Shown piece by piece: positions 13,818-22,291 of a DNA stretch of 34,641 bases (position 1 is its first letter; each line of letters starts with the position of its first letter). Under the pieces are notes generated by a model that saw only the letters and a program-made list of their open reading frames with translations, was not told the DNA's origin and did no database searches. Source of the DNA: Gluconobacter aidae (GTDB lineage Bacteria > Pseudomonadota > Alphaproteobacteria > Acetobacterales > Acetobacteraceae); assembly GCF_009547075.1 (NCBI RefSeq), contig NZ_WIPH01000027.1, forward strand, positions 1 through 34,641, given 5' to 3'. The position numbers were made by a program, and so were the translations under genes.

Positions 13818-16325
13818 ATGAGCAAGTGTTTCGGACCTAAGGCTTTCCTGATGTGCGGCGCTGCCCTGAGCTCGCTCGTTTCGCTCTCTCAACCCACACA
13901 GGCCGCGTCCACCAGAGCGACGACACAGACACATTCCACTCAAAAACCACACCGGCGGATCACGACACCCCCCGCACAGGCCGCCGCAACCCGTTCCAGA
14001 CCGTCCCCCCGCAGGACATCCATCGTTTCGAGATCCGATCCGGAAGAGATGCGCGTCACAGGAACAGCCTCCACCGGCCAGTCCGTGATGAATCCATCCA
14101 CCCCGGTTCACGGTACCACACAGGTTACAGTCGTGTCTGGCAGCCAGCTTCTGGCTACAGGACAGACAAATGTCATGCAGGCCCTCGCCCAAGCCTCGGC
14201 ATCCATTACGTCCCCGCCACAATCCGGCGTCGGAAACAGCGGCTTTATCCAGACCATGCAGCTTCGCGGCCAGTCCGCCGATGACACGCTGATCCTCGTC
14301 AACGGACATCGTCGCCATATCGGTGCGAATTTCAACGCCAATGCCGGCCCGAACTGGGGCACCGAACCCACAGATATCTCGCTGATCCCAATTTCAGCGA
14401 TCGACCATATCGAAGTCATTACCGAAGGCGCGTCGGCCCTTTATGGTCAGGATGCGCTCGCAGGTGCCGTCAATATCGTCCTCAAGCAGCGCACGCATGG
14501 CGGCTCCATCAATTTCCAGAACAGCGGCTTCTACGCCGGTGACGGGCAGGCGCTGAACGGTTACGCGGACTGGGCCACAGCACTTGGTAAAAACGGCGGC
14601 TATCTCGATCTGGCAGCGCAGGTCACCCACCAGCTTCCCACCAACCGCAGCGGCCTTTTCGTCGGGCAGCTCTATCCGGTCGGGGATTCCCGCAACGAAA
14701 CAGCCAGCCGCGATGTACAGCGCGGCCTCGGCATTCCGAAATCGACGCTGGAAACCATCAGCGAAAACATGGCGATCCCGTTAAACGAAAACCTGAGCCT
14801 CTACAGCACTTCGACCTTCAGCCACCGCAAGGCCCATGTCGCCGAGACCTACCGGAGCGCCGGAAACAGCCTGACCAACATCAATCTCTGGCCCAATGGC
14901 GCACAGCCCTATATCGGCATGGACCAGTACGATTTCGAAACAGACAACGGCATAAAGGCCCATAAATTCGGTTTCGCCTGGGACGCCTACGTCAATTACG
15001 GTCGTGACGATCAGACCTATTCGACCCTCGACAGCAACAACATCTCTCTTGGCGATGCCAGCCCGCGTGATTTCTATGACGGCAAGACCATAACCTCCGA
15101 ACTTTCGACCGGGCTGCGCGGCTCGCGCTTCTTCCACACCTCATGGCTGCCCAAGCCGATTGCCCTGCGCTTTGGTGGCGAATATCGCCGTGACACCTTC
15201 CAGATGACCGAAGGCGAAGAAGCCTCATGGACCGGCCTCGGCGCAACCGACCATGCCGGCAACGTCCCGCTCGCCGTCACCAACCGCGGACGCGACATCT
15301 ATGACGGCAACATCAATCTCGATTTCTACGTCACCAAAAAATGGGAATGGTCCCTCGGCGGACGCGCGACCAGCTACAGCCATCTGGCCACGGTCGAAAC
15401 CGGATCGATCGGAACACGGTACAACTTTAACAAACACTGGGCCATCCGCGCCAGCATCAACACCGGCTATCGCCCGCCAACACTGGGCCAGACCTATTAT
15501 TTCTATAACGCCCCCTTCGCCAACTATGCCGTGGACCAGCTTCCCAACAGCAGCGCAGCCGCAAAGGCACTCGGCGCAGGCCATATCAAGGGCGAATATT
15601 CTCGCAACTACACCATCGGCATCGACGCCACCCCCCTCAAGGACTGGAACGTCACAGGCAATCTTTACTACATCGCGATCAATGACCGTCTGGCCAGCAC
15701 AACAACCCTTGGCGGGTCAGGTGTTGCTGACATTCTTGCCGCGTCCGGCCTGAATAACGTGACCTACGCCTCGTATTATACCAACCCCGTCAATACCGAG
15801 ACCTTCGGTGGAGACATCGACACCAATTACACCCTGCACACCAAACGCGCCGGCACGTTCCGCTTCGACTTCACGTTCAACTACTCCGACAACGAAATCC
15901 GCAGTCGCAACAAGACCCCTGCCGTTCTGTCGAACATGGGTCTGTCCACGTTTAACACCTATGCCGAGGAGATGCTTCTGCACTCCGCGCCAAAGAACCG
16001 CGAAAACCTCACGGTCAACTGGAATTGCGGCAAGTGGAACGTCATGGTGCAGGAACAGCGCTACGGCTCCATCATCTTCCTCGCCAGCCCGACCGCCGCT
16101 CCCATGGAACAGCGCCCGGCTTTCCTGACCAACATGTCCGTCAGCTACAAGATCCTGCCGAAATGGAGCGTCACCGTGGGCGCAAACAATCTGGGCAACA
16201 AATATCCGACCCGCGTGCCCAAGGCGACCGCGGCACCGCTCTTCAACGAATACAAATACGCCTACTACTCGCCTTACGGCTTCAACGGCGGCATGTACTA
16301 TATTCAGACCGGCCTGACCTTCTAA
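13818..16325 (+). CDS. TonB-dependent receptor at the head of the pxp operon
   Basis: An 835-residue outer-membrane receptor. The ATG at 13818 is preferred over 13782 and 13812 because it has a well-spaced AAAAGGGG and begins the signal peptide MSKCFGPKAFLM...QPTQA-AS. A Thr/Pro/Arg-rich linker of about 50 residues is followed by a TonB-box-like EEMRVTGTA. The plug domain holds VMQALAQASASIT, MQLRGQSADDTLILVNGHRRH and HIEVITEGASALYGQDALAGAVNIVLK. The barrel ends in Phe (GLTF). The gene after it starts only 51 bases downstream with no hairpin between, so the receptor is probably the first gene of the MFS-pxp operon. That would make it the outer-membrane entry for the substrate, which is an inference. 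It shares plug style with the receptor at 32011-34503. Confidence 0.88.
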   Translation: MSKCFGPKAFLMCGAALSSLVSLSQPTQAASTRATTQTHSTQKPHRRITTPPAQAAATRSRPSPRRTSIVSRSDPEEMRVTGTASTGQSVMNPSTPVHGTTQVTVVSGSQLLATGQTNVMQALAQASASITSPPQSGVGNSGFIQTMQLRGQSADDTLILVNGHRRHIGANFNANAGPNWGTEPTDISLIPISAIDHIEVITEGASALYGQDALAGAVNIVLKQRTHGGSINFQNSGFYAGDGQALNGYADWATALGKNGGYLDLAAQVTHQLPTNRSGLFVGQLYPVGDSRNETASRDVQRGLGIPKSTLETISENMAIPLNENLSLYSTSTFSHRKAHVAETYRSAGNSLTNINLWPNGAQPYIGMDQYDFETDNGIKAHKFGFAWDAYVNYGRDDQTYSTLDSNNISLGDASPRDFYDGKTITSELSTGLRGSRFFHTSWLPKPIALRFGGEYRRDTFQMTEGEEASWTGLGATDHAGNVPLAVTNRGRDIYDGNINLDFYVTKKWEWSLGGRATSYSHLATVETGSIGTRYNFNKHWAIRASINTGYRPPTLGQTYYFYNAPFANYAVDQLPNSSAAAKALGAGHIKGEYSRNYTIGIDATPLKDWNVTGNLYYIAINDRLASTTTLGGSGVADILAASGLNNVTYASYYTNPVNTETFGGDIDTNYTLHTKRAGTFRFDFTFNYSDNEIRSRNKTPAVLSNMGLSTFNTYAEEMLLHSAPKNRENLTVNWNCGKWNVMVQEQRYGSIIFLASPTAAPMEQRPAFLTNMSVSYKILPKWSVTVGANNLGNKYPTRVPKATAAPLFNEYKYAYYSPYGFNGGMYYIQTGLTF

Positions 16326-16376
16326 GACTTTTCCAAAGACAGACCGACTGATATCCACCGGAAAGAGGCGCATTTC

Positions 16377-21884: not shown

Positions 21885-22291
21885 CTTTTCTTGAAGACCT
21901 TCTGAACGACCTGCCCGAACTGGTCGAGCGGATGAGACGTCACGACGTCCGTCATGCTTCTCTGAAAAATGAGACGGGTGCGCTTGCCCTGACACTGGCT
22001 CCGGTACTGGCGGCAAACTCAGGTCAAACGCTTCAGGCGCCCCATGTTGCCCCGCCCGCAAAAGCGGAGGGCACGCCCGTTCCCAGCTCCGAGATGGGCG
22101 TGTTCCGCTTTTGCGGCCTGGGCGAAAATCATTCGGTTCGCTTCGGCGAAATCGTGGGATTTGTCGAAACGGGCGCCCTCCGCCTGCCCGTCACGGCAAC
22201 GGCGGACGGCACACTCGGCCCCGCGCTGGTCGGGGATGGCAGCGTCGTGGGCTATCATGACGTGCTTTTCCGGATTCACCCGGATGGCTGA
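21881..22291 (+). CDS. Degenerate biotinyl-domain (BCCP-like) protein lacking the biotin lysine
   Basis: A 136-residue protein, last in the operon, overlapping the biotin carboxylase gene by 4 bases (ATGA). Its layout copies the carrier protein at 20069: a helical N terminus (FLEDLLNDLPELVERMRRHDV), a short strand region (ALALTLAP), a Pro/Ala linker, then a biotinyl/lipoyl-like domain. GEIVGFVETGALRLPV occupies the place of the canonical biotinylation hairpin, and VETGAL (residues 95-100) stands where VEAMKL is usual. The acceptor lysine position is therefore Ala99 and the Met is Gly98, so it cannot carry biotin. It may be a structural or regulatory subunit. The reading is conserved and uninterrupted, so it does not look like a pseudogene. 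Confidence 0.8.
   Translation: MTFLEDLLNDLPELVERMRRHDVRHASLKNETGALALTLAPVLAANSGQTLQAPHVAPPAKAEGTPVPSSEMGVFRFCGLGENHSVRFGEIVGFVETGALRLPVTATADGTLGPALVGDGSVVGYHDVLFRIHPDG

What the first reader, a model, noticed from the sequence alone, without database searches (positions are those of the whole stretch)
13818..22291. Receptor-to-enzyme operon: TBDR, MFS permease, PxpBCA and a biotin carboxylase pair
Nine co-directional genes run with overlaps or short gaps: TBDR, MFS, pxpB, pxpC, pxpA, BCCP, biotin carboxylase and a carrier-like protein follow one another with a longest gap of 54 bases. PxpABC is an established ATP-dependent 5-oxoprolinase, and PxpB/PxpC resemble the carboxyltransferase half of urea carboxylase. 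I infer a dedicated system in which a cyclic amide crosses the outer membrane by TonB-driven uptake, enters by an ACS permease, and is opened by a PxpABC machine that also uses carboxybiotin. A TonB receptor leading such an operon would be unusual, since 5-oxoproline itself is small enough for porins; the true substrate may be larger or bound to a carrier or metal.
Basis: partly seen in the sequence, partly recalled or inferred. Interest (0 to 1): 0.75.

Follow-up and report, generated by a model that had tools for sequence, protein, structure and literature searches.

The report
Biotin-linked locus for cyclic amides
Gluconobacter and related acetic acid bacteria keep a gene cluster that appears to import a small ring-shaped amide and open it with a 5-oxoprolinase-like enzyme paired with its own biotin machinery and a carrier-like protein that has lost its biotin site.

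Summary
The operon is real: eight (not nine) closely spaced co-directional genes at 13818-22291. MarR, HyuA/HyuB (caprolactamase-like) and a D-2-hydroxyacid dehydrogenase follow; LysR is divergent. The receptor-MFS-pxpBCA-BCCP-BC order recurs in Gluconobacter, Gluconacetobacter and Acetobacter. The biotin link is specific. Of 90 other PxpB loci (40 from the family, 50 from the class), 23 have an adjacent biotin carboxylase, and all 46 BC-linked PxpBC pairs in my tree fall in one fully supported clade. Its companion is the 'carrier-like' gene, a BCCP paralogue without the biotin lysine: present at 22 of those 23 loci (the miss is a 3.1-kb contig) and 0 of 67 without BC, across at least six gene orders. 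A receptor at least 50% identical was found only beside this clade, though not at every member. Most likely this is a split, urea-carboxylase-like lactam or hydantoin enzyme: BC loads BCCP with CO2, PxpBC transfers it, PxpA opens the ring. Carboxybiotin use and substrate are unproven, and clade-specific residues do not move toward urea carboxylase; a 2025 PDB entry with PxpBC homologues bound to a mycobacterial carboxylase is a docking precedent.

The parts
9598..10959 (-). M20-family Zn hydrolase, hydantoinase/carbamoylase family (HyuC-like)
   Evidence: TIGR01879 271.4 bits over cut-off 204; PRK12891 485.1 over 461; ErtE N-carbamyl-L-glutamate amidohydrolase model 271.9, below its cut-off 520
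11326..12654 (+). CapA/PGA_cap-like protein, associated in relatives, role unknown
   Evidence: PF09587 156.2 bits; MslH epimerase model 340.8, below cut-off 700
12667..13653 (-). LysR-type regulator divergent from the receptor
   Evidence: PF00126 and PF03466
13723..13770 (+). conserved block in the LysR-receptor intergenic region, likely operator/promoter (inferred)
   Evidence: near-invariant stretches AACATTTTAGTTG to TCATGAAAAG in 11 aligned sequences, the window's and ten Gluconobacter loci
13818..16325 (+). TonB-dependent receptor
   Evidence: PF07715 and PF00593 over cut-off; 30% identical to the window's receptor at 32011-34503 but 57-96% to receptors at related named loci
16377..17618 (+). 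MFS permease
   Evidence: PF07690; TIGR00893 best NCBIfam model but below its cut-off
17615..18256 (+). pxpB (carboxyltransferase subdomain C/D)
   Evidence: PF02682; TIGR00370 175.4 over 145.55
18253..19224 (+). pxpC (carboxyltransferase subdomain A/B)
   Evidence: PF02626; TIGR00724 273.1 over 230.2; PxpC equivalog NF045499 292.6, below 500; model pLDDT 94.6, TM 0.90 to E. coli YbgK and 0.87 to urea carboxylase
19258..20043 (+). pxpA (LamB/YcsF)
   Evidence: PF03746; NF003814 366.8 over 226
20069..20521 (+). biotin carboxyl carrier protein with EVMK biotinylation motif
   Evidence: PF00364; TIGR00531 94.7, below 115.2; M and K invariant in 13 aligned
20514..21884 (+). biotin carboxylase (second copy in this genome)
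   Evidence: TIGR00514 632.9 over 626.5; full-length match to solved biotin carboxylases; 2 PF02785 matches in own genome
21881..22291 (+). lysine-less BCCP paralogue (called CARX here)
   Evidence: no Pfam or NCBIfam hit at E 0.001; hhalign 99.4% to the BCCP profile with MK replaced by GA; biotinyl fold
22302..22865 (-). winged-helix (MarR-like) regulator
   Evidence: PF13463 65.6 bits over 22.2
22941..25031 (+). HyuA/CapA-type hydantoinase-oxoprolinase subunit
   Evidence: PF05378, PF01968, PF19278; NF050156 499.2, below 1000
25031..26599 (+). HyuB/CapB-type subunit
   Evidence: PF02538 468.5; NF050157 150.4, below 1000
26648..27769 (-). D-2-hydroxyacid dehydrogenase, recurrent neighbour
   Evidence: PF02826, PF00389; also near the locus in Gluconacetobacter and Acetobacter

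Best explanation
The locus takes up and opens a small cyclic amide (a lactam or hydantoin related to 5-oxoproline). The TonB receptor and MFS permease import it under LysR control. Biotin carboxylase uses ATP and bicarbonate to carboxylate biotin on BCCP. PxpB-PxpC, a two-gene version of the urea carboxylase carboxyltransferase, passes the CO2 to the ring amide, which activates it. PxpA then hydrolyses the ring, and the carbamate product loses CO2, leaving an open amino acid such as glutamate. The lysine-less carrier paralogue holds BC, BCCP and PxpBC together, or docks where BCCP docks. HyuAB and the M20 hydrolase form a second ring-opening and decarbamoylating branch for related substrates. 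Shown here: gene content, conserved neighbourhood, clade-specific BC linkage, loss of the lysine, predicted biotinyl fold. Inferred: complex formation, CO2 transfer, substrate, import, regulation.
For: BC, with a biotin-carrier match, beside pxpB in 22 of 40 family loci and 1 of 50 class loci. All 46 BC-linked PxpB+PxpC pairs in a 155-tip tree form one clade, support 1.0, with only two unlinked tips. The lysine-less paralogue is found at 22 of 23 loci with BC and 0 of 67 without, through at least six gene orders. No CoA-type carboxyltransferase gene with the locus: the genome has two PF01039 matches, both on other contigs. PDB entry 9yx5 holds PxpBC homologues MSMEG_0435-0436 with a mycobacterial long chain acyl-CoA carboxylase that contains the alpha3 biotin subunit. 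Caprolactamase, a HyuAB-type lactamase, needs bicarbonate (PMC8453981 passages). Purifying selection on the paralogue, dN/dS 0.23-0.39 in six comparisons.
Against: PxpABC is described as working by ATP-dependent phosphorylation, with biotin not mentioned for it (PMC13274462 passages), so this fold does not need carboxybiotin. Clade-specific residues do not approach urea carboxylase: at PxpC 278 the clade has Q in 49 of 49 while other PxpC (103 of 109) and four urea carboxylases have L. BC and BCCP could serve acetyl-CoA carboxylase instead. The receptor and HyuAB were not found at many clade loci. One clade locus (L185) lacks adjacent BC, BCCP and paralogue. The clade is monophyletic, so co-occurrence within it is not a set of independent events; the changed gene orders are the stronger point.
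Confidence: 0.5

Rival explanations
1. Ordinary biotin-independent PxpABC 5-oxoprolinase; BC and BCCP are an extra acetyl-CoA carboxylase half, co-regulated because glutamate or nitrogen supply and lipid synthesis are coupled.
For: PxpA and PxpB pass PxpA/PxpB models and PxpC passes the domain model; BC passes the AccC model; 67 of 90 family and class PxpB loci have no BC beside them.
Against: BC linkage among the tree's tips is confined to one PxpBC clade and survives several rearrangements; the lysine-less paralogue is tied to it; the genome's CoA-type carboxyltransferase genes lie on other contigs.
Confidence: 0.22
2. The complex carboxylates a linear ureido or guanidino compound rather than a lactam: HyuAB opens a hydantoin, and BC-BCCP-PxpBC acts on the carbamoyl product as urea carboxylase acts on urea, with PxpA as the hydrolase.
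For: The PxpC fold equals that part of the urea carboxylase carboxyltransferase; HyuAB and a carbamoylase-family hydrolase are neighbours.
Against: HyuAB is absent from 4 of 23 named acetic-acid-bacteria loci, and among the 40 family loci HyuA was found only at L174 and, near the edge of the fetched stretch, L190; the M20 hydrolase would already remove a carbamoyl group.
Confidence: 0.13
3. The receptor belongs to a different uptake system (for example a siderophore) and only happens to be co-transcribed.
For: 39 TonB barrels in this genome, 4 of them on this contig; the receptor was not found at 15 of 23 family clade loci.
Against: Receptors at least 50% identical occur at 28 clade loci and at none of 119 other loci examined, in two gene arrangements; the window paralogue is only 30% identical.
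Confidence: 0.15

Closest known systems
PxpABC prokaryotic 5-oxoprolinase (YbgJKL, KipI/KipA/YcsF)
   Same: Same three subunits and folds; PxpC model 40% identical and TM 0.90 to E. coli YbgK.
   Different: Own biotin carboxylase, BCCP and a lysine-less paralogue; separate clade with its own residues; below the PxpC equivalog cut-off.
Urea carboxylase / urea amidolyase
   Same: BC, BCCP and the same carboxyltransferase fold; PxpC TM 0.87 to 3va7.
   Different: Split into separate genes, far below the urea carboxylase model (PxpC 144.6 and BC 450.3 of 1303.85), has PxpA and an extra carrier paralogue; no allophanate hydrolase among the window genes I scanned.
M. smegmatis long chain acyl-CoA carboxylase with MSMEG_0435-0436 bound (PDB 9yx5, 2025)
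   Same: PxpBC homologues solved together with a biotin carboxylase complex.
   Different: There the biotin subunit is the alpha3 subunit of an acyl-CoA carboxylase; here BC and BCCP are dedicated and encoded with pxpBC. I saw the entry title and molecule names only, no paper.
ATP-dependent caprolactamase CapAB / hydantoinase HyuAB
   Same: Pfam domains of 22941-26599; lactam opening that needs bicarbonate.
   Different: Below the caprolactamase equivalog cut-offs; it is a neighbour, not the PxpBC machine.

Membership tests
PxpABC 5-oxoprolinase | PxpB, PxpC and PxpA encoded together | tested here: met
   TIGR00370 and NF003814 over cut-off; PxpC over the domain model TIGR00724
PxpABC 5-oxoprolinase | PxpC passes the PxpC equivalog model | tested here: not met
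   NF045499 292.6 bits, cut-off 500
PxpABC 5-oxoprolinase | 5-oxoproline to glutamate activity | not testable with these tools
   needs an enzyme assay
Urea carboxylase | one chain with BC, carboxyltransferase and BCCP | tested here: not met
   separate genes; best TIGR02712 scores 450.3 (BC) and 144.6 (PxpC) of 1303.85
Acetyl-CoA carboxylase | BC and BCCP passing AccC and AccB models | tested here: inconclusive
   AccC over cut-off, BCCP TIGR00531 94.7 under 115.2
Acetyl-CoA carboxylase | CoA-type carboxyltransferase (PF01039) with the locus | tested here: not met
   two matches in the genome, contigs C13 and C24, not C48
BCCP (for the gene at 21881-22291) | biotinyl-domain fold | tested here: met
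   predicted model, mean pLDDT 84.5; 1bdo TM 0.82 by target length, rmsd 1.3
BCCP (for the gene at 21881-22291) | biotin-accepting lysine | tested here: not met
   MK replaced by GA; absent in 26 of 26 and 22 of 22 relatives
Caprolactamase CapAB | passes CapA and CapB equivalog models | tested here: not met
   499.2 and 150.4 bits, cut-offs 1000
TonB-dependent receptor | plug and barrel domains | tested here: met
   PF07715 58.0 and PF00593 102.5, both over cut-off

The most novel reading that the evidence does not exclude
A biotin-dependent lactam-opening enzyme: urea-amidolyase-like chemistry applied to a ring amide, built from BC, BCCP, PxpBC and PxpA, with a retired BCCP (no biotin lysine) kept as a permanent structural or docking subunit.
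Probability: 0.45. Interest if true: 0.8.

Novelty: new variant of a known kind. Interest (0 to 1): 0.62.

Why it matters
Lombard and Moreira (PMC3199775; section 8 and passages of others read) left open why free urea-carboxylase-type carboxyltransferase genes are more widespread than the urea carboxylase BC: either they team up with other biotin carboxylases or they do another reaction. This clade is a natural case in which the free form comes with its own biotin carboxylase and carrier, so the question becomes testable in one operon. A conserved carrier paralogue without its biotin lysine would be an unusual subunit in a biotin enzyme. It would also extend TonB-dependent uptake to a small cyclic amide.

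Tried and rejected
A single-sequence search with the window's paralogue found 13 of 200 family genomes at E 0.001, only one besides the window strongly, so a profile was needed; but its profile over 385 class genomes matched 332, presumably mostly ordinary BCCPs (not checked one by one), and only supports common descent. A direct BLASTP of the window's BCCP against the paralogue gave nothing; the profile comparison did. I looked for clade residues matching urea carboxylase as a sign of carboxybiotin use; PxpB gave too few aligned urea carboxylase residues, and PxpC pointed the other way. Promoter and terminator counts were within chance. L140's lysine-less hit looks like a lipoyl domain of another enzyme and was dropped from the named table. 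L198's BCCP appears to lose its frame in the held sequence. In L116 (Firmicutes) pxpABC, BCCP and BC are also adjacent, but there the second carrier keeps its lysine and BC fell below my 50% identity filter, so L116 counts as unlinked. Paper searches: PxpB with biotin, PxpA/PxpC with TonB, YcsF with biotin carboxylase, oxoprolinase with biotin carboxylase, and names such as lactam or oxoproline carboxylase listed no paper that, from its title, abstract start or the passages I opened, describes this system; the library lacks most subscription journals, and the 2017 PxpABC paper is not held. Fisher values ignore shared ancestry and are not used as probabilities.

Row choices: I fetched 40 of 55 non-window PxpB places, dropping the 15 weakest (five of them in long urea-carboxylase-like frames, four of which I later fetched for comparison); all 50 non-window places. 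One search kept the best 80 of 240 (79 loci). The tree has 155 tips after length and duplicate filters, from 159 PxpB and 160 PxpC hits; 46 of 48 BC-linked loci remained. One search used 34 chosen loci.
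Full report
The window is one complete contig (C48) of a 3.0-Mb genome; near-identical named loci show it is a Gluconobacter. Between 13818 and 22291 there are eight co-directional genes, with junctions of +51, -4, -4, +33, +25, -8 and -4 bases. Pfam and NCBIfam assign TBDR, MFS, PxpB, PxpC, PxpA, BCCP and BC; the eighth gene matches nothing in either library at E 0.001.

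Conservation. In the genus, 17 of 26 genomes have a PxpA match and 13 (the window's included) have one at least 97% identical, so the locus is common but not universal. Of 79 named loci brought in by PxpA, 23 are acetic acid bacteria with the BC-linked form (L065-L085, L087, L088). A receptor at least 50% identical is present at 20 of these 23, immediately upstream of MFS in 19. The exceptions are L074 (its contig begins 2.3 kb before pxpA), L084 and L085; in L083 the receptor lies downstream. HyuA and HyuB are present in 19 of 23, MarR in 21 of 23. In a second architecture, pxpA-pxpC-pxpB runs divergently from BCCP-BC-paralogue, and a 60-65% identical receptor lies beyond the paralogue in five loci (L177, L178, L179, L181, L182); L188 has one on the MFS side. 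The LysR-receptor intergenic region has a strongly conserved block in 11 aligned sequences. Across named, family and class sets, receptors of at least 50% identity occur at 28 loci of the BC clade and at 0 of 119 other loci; the sets overlap slightly, the loci share ancestry, and 22 clade loci of the 50 have no such receptor on the stretch held.

The biotin link. In the family sample, 22 of 40 fetched PxpB loci have adjacent BC and a biotin-carrier match; in the wider class, 1 of 50. A FastTree of joined PxpB and PxpC alignments (155 tips) puts all 46 BC-linked tips in one clade with support 1.0 and only two unlinked tips: L089, which has BCCP and the paralogue, and L185, a third pxp set in genome G174. 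The clade has its own residues: PxpC Q278 in 49 of 49 against L in 103 of 109 others; PxpC P84 in 47 of 49; PxpB position 132 A or S in 45 of 49 against F in 104 of 108. Against my reading, four urea carboxylases share L278 with ordinary PxpC, so the clade has departed from both rather than moved toward urea carboxylase.

The eighth gene. Its family aligns with BCCP almost end to end (hhalign 99.4%), its profile finds E. coli BCCP first in the PDB (3.8e-17), and its predicted model (pLDDT 84.5) matches the biotinyl domain 1bdo with rmsd 1.3. The biotin-accepting MK pair is GA in the window protein, and the lysine is absent in 26 of 26 and 22 of 22 relatives, while all 26 BCCPs of L065-L090 keep E[VA]MK. 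Its presence follows BC: 22 of 23 loci with BC, the miss being a 3.1-kb contig, and 0 of 67 without, in family plus class; in the named set 25 of 25 with BC and 1 of 54 without (L089, which has BCCP), L140's chance hit dropped. It persists through at least six gene orders: pxpBCA-BCCP-BC-X; BCCP-BC-pxpBC-X-pxpA; divergent pxpACB with BCCP-BC-X; BCCP-BC-X-pxpBC; pxpA-BCCP-BC-pxpBC-X; and BCCP-pxpBC-X-pxpA-BC. It evolves faster than its neighbours but under purifying selection (dN/dS 0.23-0.39 in six comparisons). I infer a structural or docking subunit.

Is there another customer for BC and BCCP? The genome has two biotin carboxylases, the other on contig C35, and two CoA-type carboxyltransferase matches, both on other contigs. 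So PxpBC is the only carboxyltransferase-type pair found with this BC. In the PDB, entry 9yx5 is titled as the M. smegmatis long chain acyl-CoA carboxylase complex with MSMEG_0435-MSMEG_0436 bound; those two are PxpBC homologues, and the entry also holds the carboxylase alpha3 subunit. I saw entry titles and molecule names only. The same two genes rise under nitrogen limitation in M. smegmatis (PMC4617892 passages). The caprolactamase study found that lactam hydrolysis needs bicarbonate and considered carboxylation of the lactam as one of three mechanisms (PMC8453981 passages).

Substrate. Neighbours point to amino-acid-like chemistry. Of 34 chosen loci, ten carry a gene of an aspartate ammonia-lyase-type cluster and 17 one of an aspartate-aminotransferase-type cluster; six loci with no such receptor on the stretch carry amino-acid-type ABC permeases. 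One member of each cluster was tested by family search. HyuAB and the M20 hydrolase would convert a hydantoin into an amino acid. 5-oxoproline or hydantoin-5-propionate, both leading to glutamate, fit best, but this is inference (the hydantoin-5-propionate pathway is recalled; a paper search for it found nothing).

Verdict.

Noticed in passing
L116, 9971-17627: Faecalispora (Firmicutes) has pxpA, a transporter, pxpB, two pxpC, BCCP, BC and a second small carrier that keeps its lysine: possibly an independent origin of the BC-PxpBC link.
   Followed up: partly
outside the window (PMC12427679 passages): Lactiplantibacillus pentosus has an extra BCCP and BC and also pxpB and pxpC relative to its sister species; the passages I saw treat these separately. 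They may be one cluster.
   Followed up: no
L060, L061, L063, L064 and other Gluconobacter places: A second PxpA type, 40-43% identical to the window's, occurs in 11 of 26 Gluconobacter genomes, usually beside the first type; its neighbourhood was not examined.
   Followed up: no
27878-29091: Pieces that look like an RND efflux pump and a TetR regulator in several frames, probably remnants; judged by eye only.
   Followed up: no
30500-31699: IS5-like transposase reading frame between a galE-like gene and a further TonB receptor (named by eye; receptor by Pfam).
   Followed up: no
5090-9546: A TonB receptor directly followed by a Tat-signal phospholipase C-type phosphoesterase: another receptor-plus-enzyme pair on the same contig.
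   Followed up: no
11326-12654: CapA-like protein scoring 340.8 bits to the lasso-peptide Trp epimerase MslH model (cut-off 700); it recurs with the M20 hydrolase beside this locus in relatives.
   Followed up: partly
L185 (genome G174): A third pxp set of the BC clade with a 60% identical receptor and a second pxpA but no adjacent BC, BCCP or carrier paralogue.
   Followed up: partly
19258-20043: PxpA motif KPHGALYN reads KTHGALGN here; the nine BC-clade sequences among the 15 checked read K[TASV]HGAL[GA]N, though L098, not BC-linked, has KLHGALGN.
   Followed up: partly
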